From positions 1-33,637 of IMG/VR virus record IMGVR_UViG_3300035034_000418: a DNA stretch of 33,637 bases. One strand, written 5' to 3'. This document shows positions 602 through 33,637 of this stretch, piece by piece. Under the pieces are notes generated by a model, which worked only from the letters and a program-made list of their open reading frames with translations, made no database searches and was not told where the DNA came from. Position 1 is the stretch's first letter, and each line of letters starts with the position of its first letter. The translations under genes were made by a program, and so were the position numbers. This DNA is from a virus.

Positions 602-1372
602 TCATTCGAAAAACTGTGACGTTATCGGCTCAACATCATGTTGTGTAATAATCGGATCTACTGTATTAGCATCAGACGGGTAATCAACACACTTATGTTT
701 GAGAGTATTAAGAATACTTTTACGTTCCTTCTTGTTGGTCATAATCCAGAAATATCTATGTTTACCGCTTTCTTTTTTTCTCCAGAAAGTAGCACCAACG
801 GCTTTTTTCAACTTCTCAACGTTATGACTTCCATATCTTTCAGATACCGTTCTTGAGTGAATCCACTTATACGGTTCCTTAGTTAGAGATACAGAGAAGT
901 TAGGCATCAACGCAATAGCAGTTCCTTGATAATAAGCATTAGTTGCTTTATAGATACCGCCTTGATGACCCTGTTCACTATCCGCATAGCTCATGATAAC
1001 CTTAATACGATTATGATTTCTTTTGATATGACGTAATGCGGCTCCTATACAATAACTCTCAATATTTTTTCCGTAAGAGTCCGCAATCCACAGTCGAGTC
1101 AGTTCCCAGACTTCTGATATATCAACCTCTTCACTAAAAGATGCGGCAGCCGATCTACCAACAGGACATCCAAAAACCATACATCCAATTAATTTGTCAT
1201 CCTTTACATCAAAGAAATCATGGTCGGTATCGGATTTGTAAAATACTCCAATCGCCAATGAACACATAGTCCAAGCGTGACTATAATGATTTTTTACAAT
1301 TATATCCTTAGCAACACTCGCTTGAATTTCCTTAATGTATACTTTATCTGTATCTACAAAATCTTCTTCCAT
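602..1372 (-). CDS. mom: Mom-like DNA adenine modification protein (GNAT-type fold)
   Basis: The 256-residue protein matches the pattern of phage Mu Mom-like proteins: NHYSHAW near residue 28, a strand LIGCMVFGCP (61-70), ELTRLWI (90-96), and SYADSEQGHQGGIYKATN (128-145) followed by YYQGT. Mom proteins have an acetyltransferase-like fold and convert adenine in phage DNA to a methylcarbamoyl form that blocks host restriction. That role here is inferred from family resemblance. Translation starts at ATG 1372, with AGGATAAT just upstream; the stop codon of the helicase C-piece lies inside this ribosome binding site, so the two are translationally coupled. The tail from about residue 205 is basic and then acidic and looks family-variable. 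A different GNAT activity is possible. Confidence 0.75.
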   Translation of the reverse strand: MEEDFVDTDKVYIKEIQASVAKDIIVKNHYSHAWTMCSLAIGVFYKSDTDHDFFDVKDDKLIGCMVFGCPVGRSAAASFSEEVDISEVWELTRLWIADSYGKNIESYCIGAALRHIKRNHNRIKVIMSYADSEQGHQGGIYKATNAYYQGTAIALMPNFSVSLTKEPYKWIHSRTVSERYGSHNVEKLKKAVGATFWRKKESGKHRYFWIMTNKKERKSILNTLKHKCVDYPSDANTVDPIITQHDVEPITSQFFE

Positions 1373-7439: not shown

Positions 7440-8768
7440 TCAATCTTCCAACTCATCGTCGGTGTATTCGAGTTCATCGCTTTCACATTGGGTATGGTCT
7501 TTATATTTCATTATATGAATGTCACATAACTTTTTGTAAAGATCATCTTTTACAACTGTATTAGTTTTCAATAGATTAGTGAAACTAGCCTTAGTCAACT
7601 CATACGTCATACCATCAGAACAGTCGTATTTATATTTAGTTCCTGAACCGCCTACTTCAACAAGATTCTTTAATGCGTCTGGATCTTTTTTCAAAGCATT
7701 CTTTTTCACATCTTGAGTCTGAGCATTCTTTAGAACTTTCGCTTCTTTAAGAGTTTCCAACCAATTTCCATAGTTATCCAACCCACGGTCAAAGAAGATA
7801 TCGAATTCGGAACTTCTCATTGGGGGGCCCATTCGATTCTTGGTAATTTTACATTTAGTCTTAATACCAATAACTCGTTTTTGAGCATCCTTAATCTGAC
7901 CAATCGCTTGTAGTCGCAATCTCAAACTAGCATGGAAGCCAAGAGCTTTACCACCACTTGTTGTATATGGATCACCAAACATTGCGTTCATTTTCACACG
8001 AAGTTGGTTGGTGAAAATTAAACAGATTTGTTGACGAGCAATCATCGTTGTAATCTTTCGTAGAGCCTTACTGATAATGATAGCCTTTGCCGTAGCATAA
8101 CCATCTTTACCGTGTTCCGATTCCATTTCTGTTTTAGTCGATGCAGCAGCAACAGAGTCGATTACGATAGTAACCAATCGATCTTTGTTTGACGAACGAA
8201 CCTTCTGAATAATCATTTCCATGTGTTCGAAGATTTCCTCAACGTGGTCACATGAAATATACAAAAGTTTCGAAATGTCAACACCAATCGCTGTAACGAA
8301 GTTCTTATCAAGAGAAGCTTCAGTATCAATAAAGATAGCAAGTCCACCCTTCTTTTGTGTTTCCGCTAAAGCGTGCATTGCTAACAATGTTTTACCTGAA
8401 TTGTGATTTAACATCCCGTTCCCATAGTAACATTGTTCTGGGTGGTCAACTGCTATATCCACGATATTATAGTCTCCGATGTAATCAACGGAGGTTACTA
8501 CACTGAAAGAATCGTCATCACATTTTATACAGTTAATCGTCGGTTTTAAATCTTTACACTGTAACCATCCGGTGTCTGTGAAAAACAAATGACCATCCGA
8601 AACTTTTATGGATGTCTCATTTTCAAGGGTTACTTTATATGTCTTCTTAATTCCCTTTTCTATATAATCGGATATTGGAGAATATTCACCACCGATGGTT
8701 TTTACTTTCACTGACTTTCCTGTATTCAGCAAATCTTTTACTTCTTTAATTTGTATTTTCATAAACAT
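7440..8768 (-). CDS. uvsX: UvsX recombinase, C-terminal piece with long split-intein C-part
   Basis: Counting from the most upstream ATG (8774), residues 1-125 are an intein C-part with block B-like IKVSDGHLFFTDTG and blocks F/G YNIVDIAVDHPEQCYYGN, GMLNHN. Ser126 starts the RecA core: SGKTLLAMHALAE completes Walker A, GLAIFIDTE follows, LVTIVIDSVAA is Walker B, QLRVKMNAMFGDPYTTSGG is the L2/DNA-binding region, and IKTKCKITKNRMGPP lies in the C-lobe. The acidic tail (ESDELEYTDDELED) is typical of UvsX/RecA. Start choice: AGAGG lies directly against ATG 8774 but 6 bases before ATG 8768, so 8768 fits better; ATG 8762 is also possible. Spliced UvsX would be about 409 residues (T4: about 390). Confidence 0.94.
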   Translation of the reverse strand: MFMKIQIKEVKDLLNTGKSVKVKTIGGEYSPISDYIEKGIKKTYKVTLENETSIKVSDGHLFFTDTGWLQCKDLKPTINCIKCDDDSFSVVTSVDYIGDYNIVDIAVDHPEQCYYGNGMLNHNSGKTLLAMHALAETQKKGGLAIFIDTEASLDKNFVTAIGVDISKLLYISCDHVEEIFEHMEMIIQKVRSSNKDRLVTIVIDSVAAASTKTEMESEHGKDGYATAKAIIISKALRKITTMIARQQICLIFTNQLRVKMNAMFGDPYTTSGGKALGFHASLRLRLQAIGQIKDAQKRVIGIKTKCKITKNRMGPPMRSSEFDIFFDRGLDNYGNWLETLKEAKVLKNAQTQDVKKNALKKDPDALKNLVEVGGSGTKYKYDCSDGMTYELTKASFTNLLKTNTVVKDDLYKKLCDIHIMKYKDHTQCESDELEYTDDELED

Positions 8769-8825
8769 CACCATCCTCTATAATTATTCCACAATTACAT
8801 CGATTATTGTATCTTCCGTGACACA
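8400..8825 (-). other. Highly asymmetric split intein in the UvsX Walker A loop
   Basis: Int-N is only 13 residues, CVTEDTIIDVIVE (8787-8825), then TAA. Int-C (8400 to 8768 or 8774) holds all other intein blocks and ends LNHN. Splicing joins GLEH to SGKT, giving a perfect P-loop GxxxxGKT. Only about 10-15 bases separate the stop from the restart, and no endonuclease lies between. The restart has its own AGAGG. Confidence 0.9.
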
Positions 8826-9095
8826 ATGTTCCAATCCTGTAATTTCTGTAATACGACCTGCTGGATATCCACCCACTGGTCTATTTGCCATTATAATATC
8901 CAACTGATCGTTTCCACTTGGAATCCAATCGGATATGTTTGAAGGGTCATCTTCATTATCATCACCAAATACGAAAGCTACGTTGCCTCCGTCTTTATTG
9001 GCTTTGTTTAACATTTCTGCTATTTCATCAACCAAACCATCACGGTCATCAGCAGTCATATCGACCTCTACTTTTTTCGAGCCATTCTTTGCCAT
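8784..9095 (-). CDS. uvsX: UvsX recombinase, N-terminal piece with 13-residue split-intein N-part
   Basis: Residues 1-90 are the N-terminus of a RecA/UvsX protein. A helical, acidic start (DGLVDEIAEMLNKANKDGG) is followed by SDWIPSGNDQLDIIMA, PVGGYPAGRITEITGLEH, which leads into the Walker A loop. At residue 91 the intein begins with CVTEDTIIDVIVE and the gene ends. The leader AAGGAAATAAATGG combines a Shine-Dalgarno with the AAATAAA element seen before the SSB and helicase genes. The SSB terminator lies upstream at 9131-9158, so this gene must have its own promoter or rely on readthrough. It has no ATPase activity by itself because the GKT lies in the other piece. Confidence 0.93.
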   Translation of the reverse strand: MAKNGSKKVEVDMTADDRDGLVDEIAEMLNKANKDGGNVAFVFGDDNEDDPSNISDWIPSGNDQLDIIMANRPVGGYPAGRITEITGLEHCVTEDTIIDVIVE

Positions 9096-9175: not shown

Positions 9176-9985
9176 TTAGCTGCCGAATAATTCGTCAAAA
9201 TCACTGGAAGCATTCTTTACGGAAGTTTTCTCAGCCTTTGGAGCTGCCTTCTCTTCGGTAACTGACTTTGATTTCTTTGATTCCCCTGTTGACGAGTCGT
9301 CGGATGTGAACGCATCTTCTGATGTGTCTTCCTCTTCCTCTTCCTCAGGGTTCAAGTACTTATCAAGAGCCGCTTTGAGATCATCATATGAAGATTCTGT
9401 GAATACCTCTGTGATAGCTACTTCAGCCTTAATAGAGTCGATTATCTTAGAATCTCCAACAACACTCTTCTTTGGTCGTGCCATGATTTGAGTCTCTGGA
9501 AATGACTTTCCACTTTCTTCCATCGGAATGTATGTAACCTTAATGTCATGACCTTCCTTAATATCAGAAATGTCACCATATTCATCATCAGCGATCAGAG
9601 CCAATAGAGCCTGATACGCTTGTTTTCCGAATCCCCAGAATCGAACGCCTTGATCTTCTTCACCACGAACGACGATAGGAACGTAAATTCTCATCTTAGG
9701 ATAGAACTTCTTTGAAAGTTCATAATCCTCTTTATCGTTGGAGCTTCTGAGCTTGTTAGCAAACTCTACAAGAGGGTCTGGCCGGTCGAATGACTTTGGT
9801 GACAAATAGTTCTTGCCGTTGAAGTCATAGTGAAACCACAATTCAATGAATGGGTTTTCGGGTTGAAACTTGTAAGGAACTAATCTTACAAGTTGTTCGC
9901 CATTTGAAGGTTTCCAAATGAGCTTGTTCTTTGTGTTCTTATTTGAGATTTCTCCCAAACGCTTTTTGAGTGCGTTGATGTCCAT
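9176..9985 (-). CDS. 32: gp32-type single-stranded DNA-binding protein, without zinc ligands
   Basis: The 269-residue protein resembles T4 gp32-type SSBs. The basic N-terminus MDINALKKRLGEISNKNTK corresponds to the cooperativity domain. The OB-like core begins WKPSNGEQLVRLVPYKFQPE and continues FIELWFHYDF, then RIYVPIVVR, VRFWGFGKQAYQALLALI and DIKVTYIPMEESGKSFPETQ. The C-tail is very acidic and Ser-rich (NPEEEEEEDTSEDAFTSDDS) and ends SSDFDELFGS, the part that usually recruits replication partners. There is no cysteine anywhere in the protein, so the Cys/His zinc site of T4 gp32 is absent. The leader AAAGGTAAATAAACATGG is shared with other replication genes. A GATATTTATTA motif lies at 10114-10124. 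Confidence 0.88.
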   Translation of the reverse strand: MDINALKKRLGEISNKNTKNKLIWKPSNGEQLVRLVPYKFQPENPFIELWFHYDFNGKNYLSPKSFDRPDPLVEFANKLRSSNDKEDYELSKKFYPKMRIYVPIVVRGEEDQGVRFWGFGKQAYQALLALIADDEYGDISDIKEGHDIKVTYIPMEESGKSFPETQIMARPKKSVVGDSKIIDSIKAEVAITEVFTESSYDDLKAALDKYLNPEEEEEEDTSEDAFTSDDSSTGESKKSKSVTEEKAAPKAEKTSVKNASSDFDELFGS

Positions 9986-26795: not shown

Positions 26796-28448
26796 TTAGA
26801 GATTTCTATTATAACTCCTCCATATATACTTTATATTCCCACAGTCATATATTTTATCATAGCCGTTTAACTGCATATTCTCATACTCTGACAACTCAGT
26901 GTGAAATACTTTCAATTTCTTATGCAAAATCGATTTTCTAAAATTGAAACGGTGGTGTCTTATATTATAACCATTCTTGTAATACCAATAGTTTACCTGA
27001 GTTAAATGTGAAAAGACGAAACCCATCTTATCATACACCGATTGGTGAACAGCGGTAAACCTTCTATCTGCATATGTAACCACTGTGTTCGGTGAGTTGG
27101 TTCTAATGAAATGTTTAAATAATTTACTGGCGATTCCAATTATATTTGTTTTTGTAGCAAACCTCATCAATTCGAATTCTGATGGTGATGGGTGACTCCC
27201 CAGTGATATTCTACCACTTCCAAATGTCATAACCGCTACCAATTCGTCATTGTAATACGCGCCATATCGTATTGAACTCTTATCGTTTCCTTGTATATGA
27301 TGTGATTCTAAGAAGTCCCGTTTTGTATTAGGTGAAATTTCTTTAATTATACACTTTCTGGCATAAATCTTGTAATTCACACACCCCAATTTATGTCTCA
27401 GCTTTTCTTTTATAACATCTTTCTTGTTAATCCATTCATCTTCAAATATATGAATTAACTGAACACCCATCTCTTCACATAATTCGGTCTTTTGTAAATG
27501 ATATAGTTTATCGACTGATGAATATGAGTGATAATATAGTGAGTTGTATTCAATCGCTATTTTCTTATTCTCTATATATATGTCCAATTCTCGGTCTTTA
27601 ATTACGTCTCTACGGTGTTGAGTGAGTTGATTCGGCGGCATAATCTCTTCTAAGAATTCTACAATCTCATTCTCACATACCGACCCTTTATTTAAGGGAT
27701 AACAATTTAGACATCTAGGAAGATGTCCACCGTCAATGTGATCTTTAAATTCACAGTCACATCTTAAACATTTAAACTTGTAATGATTCCTTCGGTCGGT
27801 TGTGATGTATTCATCAAACTCGAATAATGGAACTACCTTTAAATTCAATTTATGAACGGTCTGTAGCTTATTATAAAAACTCTTTTTATATGATTGATGC
27901 TTTCGATCCTGAATTTCTCTGACCTGAGACGGATGAGTTACTCCGTAGTTGTTCGTATAGTAGTTACATATCTTTTGTTTGATTTCATCAGATGCAAACA
28001 CATTATCGACTCCATAACGTTCGTTTACAGTATCCTTTACAGCTTTTTTGGTAGATTCCAACTGTGACATGTTATCCACTCCGAATTTATCTTTTATATG
28101 TTGTTTGAACTCATCGGTTTTAAAATATGAATCCGTCCCGTAATGATCAATACAACTCTGTTTAATCTTTTTCTTAACATGATCAGATTTAGATACGTTA
28201 TCCACTCCGTATTTTTTTATACATGTAGATTTGGCTTTGTTTGGATTTACGAAACTACCATTACCGTAGCGTTCGAGCTTTGTTTGTTGTATCTTCGACA
28301 ACCTATCCACATCGTTTGCTGTATATTGGGATGAACATTTACCGTTACAAAACTTCTGCGCTCGTGATATCAAGCTTTCAAATTCACTGCCACAGTGTTG
28401 ACAATGTTGAGTGTGCCAATATTTTGGATTTTTGTCATTCGTAACCAT
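26796..28448 (-). CDS. Large Vsr-like homing endonuclease (copy 1)
   Basis: This 550-residue protein has an N-terminal zinc finger (CQHCGSEFE, FCNGKCSS). A series of about five DNA-binding repeats of the form (I/V)xxRYGVDNVxxSDxxKxK follows (about 45-180), with a second zinc finger (CLRCDCEF, CLNC) at 227-249. The Vsr-type nuclease core is RELDIYIENKKIAIEYNSLYY (286-306), then LIHIFEDEW. A conserved C-terminal domain follows (SHHIQGNDKSSIRYGAYYND, VVTYADRRFTA, YDKIYDCGNIKYIWR). Free-standing homing endonucleases cut phage genomes that lack them and spread by repair. It lies directly after the tail tube gene. AGGTTGAG sits before ATG 28448, and reading is intact, so it is probably functional. 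Confidence 0.86.
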   Translation of the reverse strand: MVTNDKNPKYWHTQHCQHCGSEFESLISRAQKFCNGKCSSQYTANDVDRLSKIQQTKLERYGNGSFVNPNKAKSTCIKKYGVDNVSKSDHVKKKIKQSCIDHYGTDSYFKTDEFKQHIKDKFGVDNMSQLESTKKAVKDTVNERYGVDNVFASDEIKQKICNYYTNNYGVTHPSQVREIQDRKHQSYKKSFYNKLQTVHKLNLKVVPLFEFDEYITTDRRNHYKFKCLRCDCEFKDHIDGGHLPRCLNCYPLNKGSVCENEIVEFLEEIMPPNQLTQHRRDVIKDRELDIYIENKKIAIEYNSLYYHSYSSVDKLYHLQKTELCEEMGVQLIHIFEDEWINKKDVIKEKLRHKLGCVNYKIYARKCIIKEISPNTKRDFLESHHIQGNDKSSIRYGAYYNDELVAVMTFGSGRISLGSHPSPSEFELMRFATKTNIIGIASKLFKHFIRTNSPNTVVTYADRRFTAVHQSVYDKMGFVFSHLTQVNYWYYKNGYNIRHHRFNFRKSILHKKLKVFHTELSEYENMQLNGYDKIYDCGNIKYIWRSYNRNL

Positions 28449-29222: not shown

Positions 29223-30719
29223 ATGGGAAGGCCAAGAAAAAATCCACTGACAATTAAAAAGATATGTGAACATTGTAATAAGGAATTTGAAATTTCATAT
29301 AACAAGAAGAATCAGAGATTTTGCAACAAACACTGTTCGAACTCATGCAATACAACTAAAGATAAGATACGGAAATCTCAAAATATTACATTTGATAAAA
29401 AATACGGCGGACATCCAATGACAACTGACAATGTAAAAAAGAATTTTCAGTCCGCTATGGAATCTAAATATGGAGTAAAACATGCTCTTCAAAACTCCAA
29501 CATACTCAAAACCATGAAATCCACTAAAATTGAGAGATATGGAGATGAGAATTACAACAACGAAGAGAAAAGAAAACAAACCTGTCTACAGAGATATGAC
29601 GTTGATAACATAAGAAAATGTGAGTGGTATAAACCTATATTGGCAGACCACCGAAGAAATAACCATTATGAGTATCTATTAAACTATTTCAAAGAGAGAA
29701 AATTAACTCTTCTTACTACACCGCAAGATTATAATGGTATCTGGTCAGGCGACAAATATGAATTTTGTTGTGATGATTGTAATAATAGATTCGTGAGGCC
29801 GTTATATTCTATTGCAAGCATAGAATGTGACGTATGTAATCCCAGCCCAAGATATAAAGAAGAGAACTCCTTACATACATTTCTATTAGAAACGTGTAAC
29901 GATTTAATAATAGAACGTAGAAACCGAATAATACTGAAAGGTCAAGAGTTGGATTTTTTAATACACAAAAAAAGATTAGCAATTGAGTATAATGGGTTAT
30001 ACTGGCATTCAGAATCTAGAGGAAAAAATAAAATATATCATTTAAATAAAACCGTTCGGAGTTTAACTATGGGATATAATTTAATACATATATTTGATTA
30101 TGAATGGAATACAAAACAGGAAATTGTAAAGAGTATAATTCGTTCAAAAATTGGTGAGAAGGTAGAATTGTTATACGCCAGAAATTTCAAAGTTAAACAA
30201 GTCGAATCTAACATTTCAAATTCATTCTTAATCAACAATCATATACAAGGAAAAGACAACGCTCCTATAAGATATGGGTTGTTTAACAAACATGATGAAT
30301 TAATGTCATTGATGACATTCCGCAAGTCTAGGTTTGATAAATCTGTAGAATATGAGTTGAGTCGTTTTTGTAATATATTAAACGTTTCTATCACAGGTGG
30401 AGCAAGTAAATTATATTCCCATTTTGTTAAGAATCATAATCCCAACAGCGTAATATCATATTCCGATAGAAGATATTTCGATGGAAATTTATATAACGTA
30501 TTAGGATTCGATTTTATCAACAATACTGCGCCTGGATTCCATTTTGTTTCGCCGGATTATAAAACACTATACAATTGGCAACAGTTCCAAAAACATATGT
30601 TGAAAGATAAACTAACAGGGTTCGATCCAAATTTGACCGCATGGGAGAATATGAAAAACCACGGCTTTGACCGAATATGGGATTGTGGAAATTCCAAATG
30701 GATATGGAAGTCTACTTAA
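29223..30719 (+). CDS. Large Vsr-like homing endonuclease (copy 2), plus strand
   Basis: The 498-residue protein is the same family as the 26796-28448 product: zinc finger (CEHCNKEFE, FCNKHCSN), repeats (IERYGDENYNN, LQRYDVDNIRK), a second zinc finger (CCDDCNNRF, CDVC) and the nuclease core KGQELDFLIHKKRLAIEYNG (about 239-258) with LYWHSES and LIHIFDYEW. The C-terminal domain (NNHIQGKDNAPIRYGLF, VISYSDRRYFDG, FDRIWDCGNSKWIWKS) is closely alike. It is inserted between the tail tube gene and the 73-residue gene, on the opposite strand. Its stop overlaps the stop of the convergent gene over TTAA (30716-30719). TTGACA at 29163 with a weak -10 about 17-18 bases on is a possible promoter. Confidence 0.86.
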   Translation: MGRPRKNPLTIKKICEHCNKEFEISYNKKNQRFCNKHCSNSCNTTKDKIRKSQNITFDKKYGGHPMTTDNVKKNFQSAMESKYGVKHALQNSNILKTMKSTKIERYGDENYNNEEKRKQTCLQRYDVDNIRKCEWYKPILADHRRNNHYEYLLNYFKERKLTLLTTPQDYNGIWSGDKYEFCCDDCNNRFVRPLYSIASIECDVCNPSPRYKEENSLHTFLLETCNDLIIERRNRIILKGQELDFLIHKKRLAIEYNGLYWHSESRGKNKIYHLNKTVRSLTMGYNLIHIFDYEWNTKQEIVKSIIRSKIGEKVELLYARNFKVKQVESNISNSFLINNHIQGKDNAPIRYGLFNKHDELMSLMTFRKSRFDKSVEYELSRFCNILNVSITGGASKLYSHFVKNHNPNSVISYSDRRYFDGNLYNVLGFDFINNTAPGFHFVSPDYKTLYNWQQFQKHMLKDKLTGFDPNLTAWENMKNHGFDRIWDCGNSKWIWKST

Positions 30720-32837: not shown

Positions 32838-32847
32838 TATAAATATC
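32838..32847 (-). promoter_or_regulatory. GATATTTATA motif before the 83-aa gene
   Basis: The minus strand reads TTTGATATTTATAACCATG, with the motif 3 bases before the start. It overlaps the stop of the endonuclease gene (32846), so the gene would be expressed apart from the endonuclease. Confidence 0.4.
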
Positions 32848-33637
32848 AAACAGTTGGAGATTCCCATATAAATTTTAAATTCCCACAATCCCAGATTCTA
32901 TCATATCCGTTTAACTGCATATTTTGCCACTCAGTTAAGGTTGGGTCAAAATTTTCTAACTTGTCTTTTAACTTGTGTTTTTGAAAGTTAACTCTGTTGA
33001 GTATTTGGGAGTTGGTAATGTAATGATACGACGGGGGTGTATTTCCAACAAATTCAAATCCCAGGTTTAAGTAAACCCCTCCATTAAAATATCTCATGTC
33101 TGAGTAACTTACAATTGATATCGGATCATTGTGTTTAACAAAATATTTAAACAGTTTCGATGCTCCCCCAACTATTCGTGTGTTGAGGATGTTACAATAT
33201 CTACTCATTTCATATTGAACCTTCTTATCAAATCTTGATTTACAGAAAGTCATAACAGATACTAATTTCCCATCCATAAAAAGTCCGATTCGTGTAGATG
33301 ATCTATCAGACCCCTGAATATGGTTTGCGTTCAAAAATGCAGAACATATACTAACAGGTATTTCCTTTATAATACATTTTCTTGCATAAACTATATTATC
33401 ACATGAGCTGAATCGGTTACGTAATATGCTTTTTACTATTTCCGTTTTGTCAAACCATTCGTTTTCAAATACCTGTATCAATGTGATGTTCTTCTCAATA
33501 CACATATCCCGTTTCGATAAATGGTATTGTTTGTCTTTACCACCGGAGATTTCCGAATGCCAATATAATCCATGATATTCCACTCCCAACTTCAATTGTG
33601 GATCGAATACGTCGATTTCCATCTTATTATCTAACGG
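32846..33637 (-). CDS. Vsr-like homing endonuclease (copy 3), 5' end outside window
   Basis: The reading frame is open to the window edge; the visible part begins with the nuclease core LDNKMEIDVFDPQLKLGVEY, then HGLYWHSEIS and LIQVFENEW. It keeps the full C-terminal domain (NANHIQGSDRSSTRIGLFMD, SIVSYSDMRYFNGG, YDRIWDCGNLKFIWE). The N-terminal zinc finger and repeats seen in the other two copies should lie beyond 33637. It is closer to copy 2 than copy 1 by eye (VGGASKLFKYFVKH versus TGGASKLYSHFVKN). The gene is upstream of the 83-residue gene and reads through to its leader. Confidence 0.85.
   Translation of the reverse strand, partial: PLDNKMEIDVFDPQLKLGVEYHGLYWHSEISGGKDKQYHLSKRDMCIEKNITLIQVFENEWFDKTEIVKSILRNRFSSCDNIVYARKCIIKEIPVSICSAFLNANHIQGSDRSSTRIGLFMDGKLVSVMTFCKSRFDKKVQYEMSRYCNILNTRIVGGASKLFKYFVKHNDPISIVSYSDMRYFNGGVYLNLGFEFVGNTPPSYHYITNSQILNRVNFQKHKLKDKLENFDPTLTEWQNMQLNGYDRIWDCGNLKFIWESPTV

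What the first reader, a model, noticed from the sequence alone, without database searches (positions are those of the whole stretch)
8400..9095. UvsX recombinase split by an intein whose N-part is only 13 residues
The first UvsX piece ends GLEH|CVTEDTIIDVIVE-stop, and the second begins within 10-15 bases with a C-part of 121-125 residues ending LNHN|SGKT. Splicing restores a perfect Walker A. Known atypically split inteins have N-parts of roughly 16-37 residues, so 13 would be at the extreme low end. There is no endonuclease between the halves, and the restart has its own AGAGG. The split thus looks like a single stop plus a ribosome site inside a once-continuous intein.
Basis: partly seen in the sequence, partly recalled or inferred. 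Interest (0 to 1): 0.9.

Follow-up and report, generated by a model that had tools for sequence, protein, structure and literature searches.

The report
UvsX split intein, 13-residue N-part
A phage recombination gene is broken in two by a self-splicing protein element whose front half is only 13 amino acids; a dozen other phage contigs carry the same split, which makes it a conserved and apparently the shortest natural split of its kind, although no splicing has been demonstrated.

Summary
UvsX lies in two adjacent ORFs: 9095-8784(-), ending GLEH|CVTEDTIIDVIVE-stop, and 8774-7440(-), whose 121-125-residue intein part ends LNHN|SGKT. A second contig (99.98% over 4.35 kb) has both. An intein-less sister UvsX has uninterrupted GLEHSGKT, the predicted splice product.

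The decisive new evidence is a family. Twelve further, diverged split inteins sit at the same UvsX Walker A site. Counting the window, the N-part is 13 residues in 11 cases and 14 in two. The gap between halves runs from 9 nt (window) to 1.34 kb; five gaps hold an intact PD-(D/E)XK-like nuclease ORF, others remnants of it. Five continuous relatives exist. N13 and the C-part are under purifying selection. A fold of the window intein (pLDDT 92) matches VidaL best (TM 0.85).

So this is a VidaL-like atypically split intein, two residues below the shortest characterised natural N-part (15, PolB16). "A single stop in a once-continuous intein" is too simple: the split is an old, conserved family trait tied to an endonuclease cassette. 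Trans-splicing is inferred.

The parts
8826..9095 (-). UvsX N-extein, 90 aa, ending ITGLEH
   Evidence: ORF; phrog_97 UvsX-like 1.7e-08
8787..8825 (-). Intein N-part, CVTEDTIIDVIVE, 13 residues
   Evidence: Sequence; same length in 10 of 12 diverged split relatives, 14 in the other two
8784..8786 (-). Stop TAA of the N-piece
   Evidence: also in L083
8778..8780 (-). Second in-frame stop TAG between the halves
   Evidence: also in L083
8775..8779 (-). AGAGG, probable ribosome-binding site; 6 nt from ATG 8768
   Evidence: Sequence; inference
8400..8774 (-). Intein C-part, 121-125 aa depending on start (ATG 8774, 8768 or 8762), ending LNHN
   Evidence: PDB sequence matches; AF2 fold and VidaL match; family alignment
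7440..8399 (-). UvsX C-extein, from SGKT (second half of Walker A) to stop
   Evidence: Pfam RecA 2.3e-54
9176..9985 (-). Upstream gene: single-strand DNA binding protein (gp32-like), context only
   Evidence: phrog_1192 4.2e-13

Best explanation
The two ORFs are the halves of a phage UvsX recombinase fractured by a class 1 mini-intein that is split after its second beta-strand (site S1, as in VidaL). The 13-residue N-part on the N-piece docks into the 121-125-residue C-part; Cys1 does the N-S shift, Ser+1 takes the N-extein, and Asn cyclisation next to the penultimate His releases the intein, joining GLEH to SGKT and creating the UvsX Walker A. UvsX activity would thus depend on trans-splicing. 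The split is a conserved trait of a phage UvsX intein family in which the S1 loop is also the place of a PD-(D/E)XK-like endonuclease ORF; in the window that ORF is absent and only two stops, an AGAGG and restart codons remain. Shown: gene layout, motifs, conservation of the 13/14-residue split, purifying selection, high-confidence intein fold. Inferred: trans-splicing and its chemical steps (from established class 1 intein knowledge), the start codon used, and nuclease loss as the route to the present layout.
For: Layout and stops. Intein-less sister with GLEHSGKT. PDB matches by sequence: 7cfv 1.1e-9, 6qaz 2.8e-7, VidaL 6vgv 4.4e-6 aligned over the whole C-part from its start. AF2 of the read-through intein with 17 relatives: pLDDT 91.7, pTM 0.86; best PDB fold VidaL, TM 0.85/0.89, 2.2 A. 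Twelve diverged split relatives, N-part 13 (10 of them) or 14 (2) residues. Gaps: 9 nt in the window; 77, 97, 102, 138, 189, 219, 445, about 1119, 1127, 1129, about 1298 and 1341 nt in relatives; intact nuclease ORF in L208, L209, L212, L226, L230, whose ends meet the C-part ATG, mostly as ATGA. N13: pooled pS 0.68, pN 0.15; C-part median dN/dS 0.26 (synonymous sites near saturation). Catalytic N3 His, C2 Asp and terminal His-Asn invariant in the family.
Against: No splicing has been shown. The restart has three possible ATGs. The window gap shows no statistically convincing trace of the nuclease tail (null fraction 0.075), so nuclease loss in this lineage is inferred from relatives only. The intein tree is unresolved. 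The fold was run as one chain with the two stops read as Gln, not as two chains, and the N-parts of split relatives were not in its alignment.
Confidence: 0.85

Rival explanations
1. The window copy arose on its own from a continuous intein such as that of L199, by local mutations that gave stops and a restart, independent of any endonuclease. It still trans-splices.
For: Gap of only 9 nt; no significant nuclease vestige in it; the continuous L199 is in the same extein clade as the window (100/100).
Against: The split falls at the same codon as in 12 relatives, several with nuclease or remnant. Among inteins the window is nearest to the split L205 (63%), not L199 (60%). Two stops and a longer loop, not one stop.
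Confidence: 0.25
2. The intein is a decaying pseudo-intein; the break has inactivated UvsX and the phage lives without it or has another recombinase.
For: The contig is incomplete (33.6 kb), so another recombinase elsewhere cannot be excluded; no activity shown.
Against: Purifying selection on N13 and C-part in the family, catalytic residues intact, both ORFs open with a ribosome site, the same 13/14-residue split in 13 contigs, confident fold.
Confidence: 0.07
3. Sequencing or assembly artefact: the intein is continuous.
For: None beyond the short gap.
Against: Two separate in-frame stops plus an extended loop; the second contig L083 agrees; diverged relatives are split at the same point.
Confidence: 0.01

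Closest known systems
VidaL split intein (PDB 6vgv/6vgw)
   Same: Split site S1 after beta-2, long C-part, Cys-dependent, same mini-intein fold: best structure match (TM 0.85/0.89) and a sequence match over the whole C-part.
   Different: N-part 16 aa (PMC13014065) against 13 here; 22% identity in the structural alignment; no splicing measured here.
PolB16 OarG split intein (PDB 8cpn/8cpo)
   Same: Atypical S1 split; holds the record of 15 aa for a characterised natural N-part (PMC10189870).
   Different: Cysteine-less (Ser1), N3 His dispensable, 168-aa C-part, in a B-family polymerase; here Cys1, N3 His conserved, 13 aa, in UvsX.
Second UvsX intein of the same relatives (L199, L205, L214, L230: CVDPxTTKIKIRYK[V/P/I]-stop)
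   Same: Atypically split intein in UvsX with a short N-part (15 aa).
   Different: Different insertion site (after FGDxx), different N-part sequence, continuous in L212.
Fractured-gene split inteins of environmental phages (gp41-1, gp41-8, NrdJ-1 type; arrangement described from memory)
   Same: Phage replication genes broken between split intein halves, often with a free-standing endonuclease gene in the gap; gp41-1 matches by sequence and fold.
   Different: Those split near the canonical endonuclease site with an N-part of roughly 90-100 aa; here the break, and the relatives' nuclease ORF, are in the S1 loop, and that nuclease looks PD-(D/E)XK-like.

Membership tests
Class 1 intein | Cys/Ser at position 1, N3 block with Thr/Ser and His, C2 Asp, C-terminal His-Asn, Cys/Ser/Thr at +1 | tested here: met
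   Window: C1, S and H in VSDGHLF, D in IVDIAV, HN, S+1; N3 His, C2 Asp and HN invariant in 18 rows
Class 1 intein | HINT horseshoe fold | tested here: met
   AF2 pLDDT 91.7; the 50 best PDB matches listed are inteins or other HINT (BIL) domains
Class 1 intein | Protein splicing activity | not testable with these tools
   Needs expression of the proteins
Atypically split (S1) intein | Gene broken directly after beta-strand 2, giving a short N-part and a long C-part on separate ORFs | tested here: met
   13-residue N-part; model strands 12-18 and 24-30 flank the break; stops confirmed
Atypically split (S1) intein | Trans-splicing of separately made halves | not testable with these tools
   Only inferred, from conservation and selection
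UvsX/RecA recombinase (host protein) | RecA-family extein with Walker A restored on splicing | tested here: met
   Pfam RecA 2.3e-54, phrog_97; GLEHSGKT uninterrupted in L003/L004
Fractured-gene intein with endonuclease cassette | Endonuclease gene between the intein halves | tested here: not met
   Window gap is 9 nt; the feature is present in relatives L208, L209, L212, L226 and L230

The most novel reading that the evidence does not exclude
This is the first recognised family of natural split inteins with a 13-residue N-part. Its split state is tied to an endonuclease cassette in the S1 loop, and a whole cycle is visible at one site across phages: continuous intein, nuclease inserted at S1, nuclease decay, bare split (the window), and re-fusion to a continuous intein (L219 reads CVTEDTIIDVIIE-MKKEKIKISEI, keeping what looks like the start Met of a former C-part).
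Probability: 0.35. Interest if true: 0.7.

Novelty: new member of a known kind. Interest (0 to 1): 0.55.

Why it matters
If it splices, the N-part would be the shortest natural one known (13 against 15), useful as a synthetic tag for protein labelling, with about a dozen natural variants to choose from. The family also offers an uncommon comparative series at one site (empty, continuous, split with nuclease, split with nuclease remnant, bare split) for asking how split inteins arise, whether they can re-fuse, and why phages keep a recombinase gene broken at its ATP-binding loop.

Tried and rejected
Nuclease-tail vestige in the window gap: one frame reads IIIEDGDVYENTN, which looked like the relatives' nuclease tail, but a score test was not significant, so it is not claimed. 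Single-stop model: two stops and the family argue against it. Assembly error: rejected by L083/L203. Direction of split versus continuous changes: the tree is too short to resolve; an AU test rejects the continuous copies as one clade (p 0.025 for five, 0.015 for four), so more than one change is likely, but the groups were chosen after the tree was seen and the direction is not shown. A scan of genome contigs for the family found none. tblastn of phage isolates gave one clear relative over the whole intein, a continuous one in Salicola phage SCTP-2 (E 7e-6). Papers on VidaL (PNAS 2020), fractured genes (2009) and GOS-TerL (2015) were not held.

Full report
Observation. The window carries uvsX on the minus strand in two pieces. 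The first, 9095-8784, is 103 aa: a 90-residue N-extein ending ITGLEH, then CVTEDTIIDVIVE and TAA. The second, 8774-7440, begins with a 121-125-residue intein C-part ending GNGMLNHN, followed by SGKTLLAMH. Pfam and PHROGs identify both exteins as RecA/UvsX. The pieces share a reading frame; read-through gives VIVE*L*RMVMFMKIQ, with two in-frame stops. AGAGG is 6 nt from ATG 8768. A second contig, 99.98% identical over 4354 bp, has the same sequence there. No other UvsX is on this 33.6-kb contig, but the contig is incomplete.

It is an intein. The fused parts match the DnaX, gp41-1 and VidaL inteins in the PDB; the VidaL match begins at the start of the C-part. The nearest intein-less UvsX (L003/L004; 79% identity over the compared extein) reads GLEHSGKT, exactly the product that splicing would give. 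AlphaFold2 on the window's own read-through, with 17 relatives in the alignment, gave pLDDT 91.7 and pTM 0.86, and the break lies between predicted strands 12-18 and 24-30. Foldseek put VidaL first (E 2.6e-11, TM 0.85/0.89, 2.2 A), and the 50 matches listed are inteins or other HINT (BIL) domains. This corresponds to split site S1, described for VidaL and PolB16 (PMC13014065).

It belongs to a family. A pattern scan for HN|SGKT junctions found L199, a continuous copy at the same site (GLEG|CVTEDTEIDVIIDNPTKIKIKEV...GNGMLNHN|SGKT). Alignment-based scans then found 12 further split members and four more distinct continuous ones. N-parts of the split members: 13 residues in the window, L205, L207-L214 and L230; 14 in L206 (CVTEDTLIEVIIDD) and L226 (CVHPDTIVEILIEN). 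The gap from the stop to the first Met of the C-part runs from 9 nt in the window to 1341 nt (L226 and L230). L208, L209, L212, L226 and L230 have an intact ORF in the gap that ends at the C-part ATG, usually as an ATGA overlap. It resembles PD-(D/E)XK endonucleases (phrog_15427, E 5e-7 to 1e-9; Phage_endo_I below its cut-off). L210 keeps only the C-terminal third of that ORF, and L206, L211 and L213 keep short stretches like its tail; in L205, L207 and L214 the resemblance, judged by eye, is weaker. A score test for such a vestige in the window was negative.

Selection. Among the split members, N13 has pooled pS 0.68 and pN 0.15, and the C-part a median dN/dS of 0.26 (synonymous sites are near saturation, so the exact ratios are rough). 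The catalytic His of N3, the C2 Asp and the terminal His-Asn are invariant. That is not the pattern of decay.

History. On UvsX exteins, the window, L199 (continuous intein) and L003 (no intein) form one clade (100/100), but by identity the window intein is nearest to L205 (63%) and that of L199 to L208 (68%), both in distant exteins. Different copies may have arrived by transfer; the intein tree itself has no well-supported branch near the window. The continuous copies as a single clade are rejected (p 0.025), with the caution that the group was named after the tree was seen. L219 reads CVTEDTIIDVIIE directly followed by MKKEKIKISEI, as if halves had been joined at the old start codon; this suggests re-fusion but could be chance.

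Comparison with what is known. Characterised natural atypically split inteins have N-parts of 15-37 aa (PMC13014065), and PolB16 with 15 is called the shortest (PMC10189870). Artificial splits with 11 residues work (M86; the CL intein at S11, slowly), so 13 is chemically plausible. I found no report of a 13-residue natural N-part, but several key papers were not available. The kind, an S1-split intein, is known; the length, the family at the UvsX P-loop and the nuclease ORF in the S1 loop appear new to the literature I could read.

Verdict. Real, conserved and very probably functional; a new and extreme member of a known kind.

Noticed in passing
window 4188-1374 (-): The replicative helicase (gp41/DnaB-like, phrog_19) is in three pieces separated by two more split inteins: GAGK|CIGPNTKIDV.. 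(N-tail of about 72 aa) with a 136-aa C-part ending ILSHN|SW, and ASQSNR|CFCIDS.. (about 93 aa) with a C-part ending YTHN|SAAK. The first C-part starts like that of an S1-split intein, so the long N-tail may hold non-intein residues.
   Followed up: partly
L199/L218, L205, L214, L230 (continuous in L212): A second intein lies further down UvsX: FGDxx|CVDPxTTKIKIRYK[V/P/I]-stop, an N-part of 15 residues in four contigs; L199 has an endonuclease-like ORF between its halves.
   Followed up: partly
window 26796-28448 (-), 29223-30719 (+), 32846-33622 (-): Three related free-standing homing endonucleases (phrog_3339) in one 33.6-kb contig; none lies at the split inteins.
   Followed up: no
L219:5001-5435: Continuous intein that reads as the exact junction of a 13-residue N-part and a Met-initiated C-part: a candidate case of a split intein re-fusing.
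   Followed up: partly
window 602-1372 (-): Mom-like DNA modification protein (phrog_1384, E 8.6e-46) just downstream of the split helicase.
   Followed up: no
L215:2501-2941 (Salicola phage SCTP-2, gene 204): Continuous VidaL-like intein in a protein annotated as hypothetical, at a Walker A site (GDSG|CLPEDA..SHN|SGKS).
   Followed up: no
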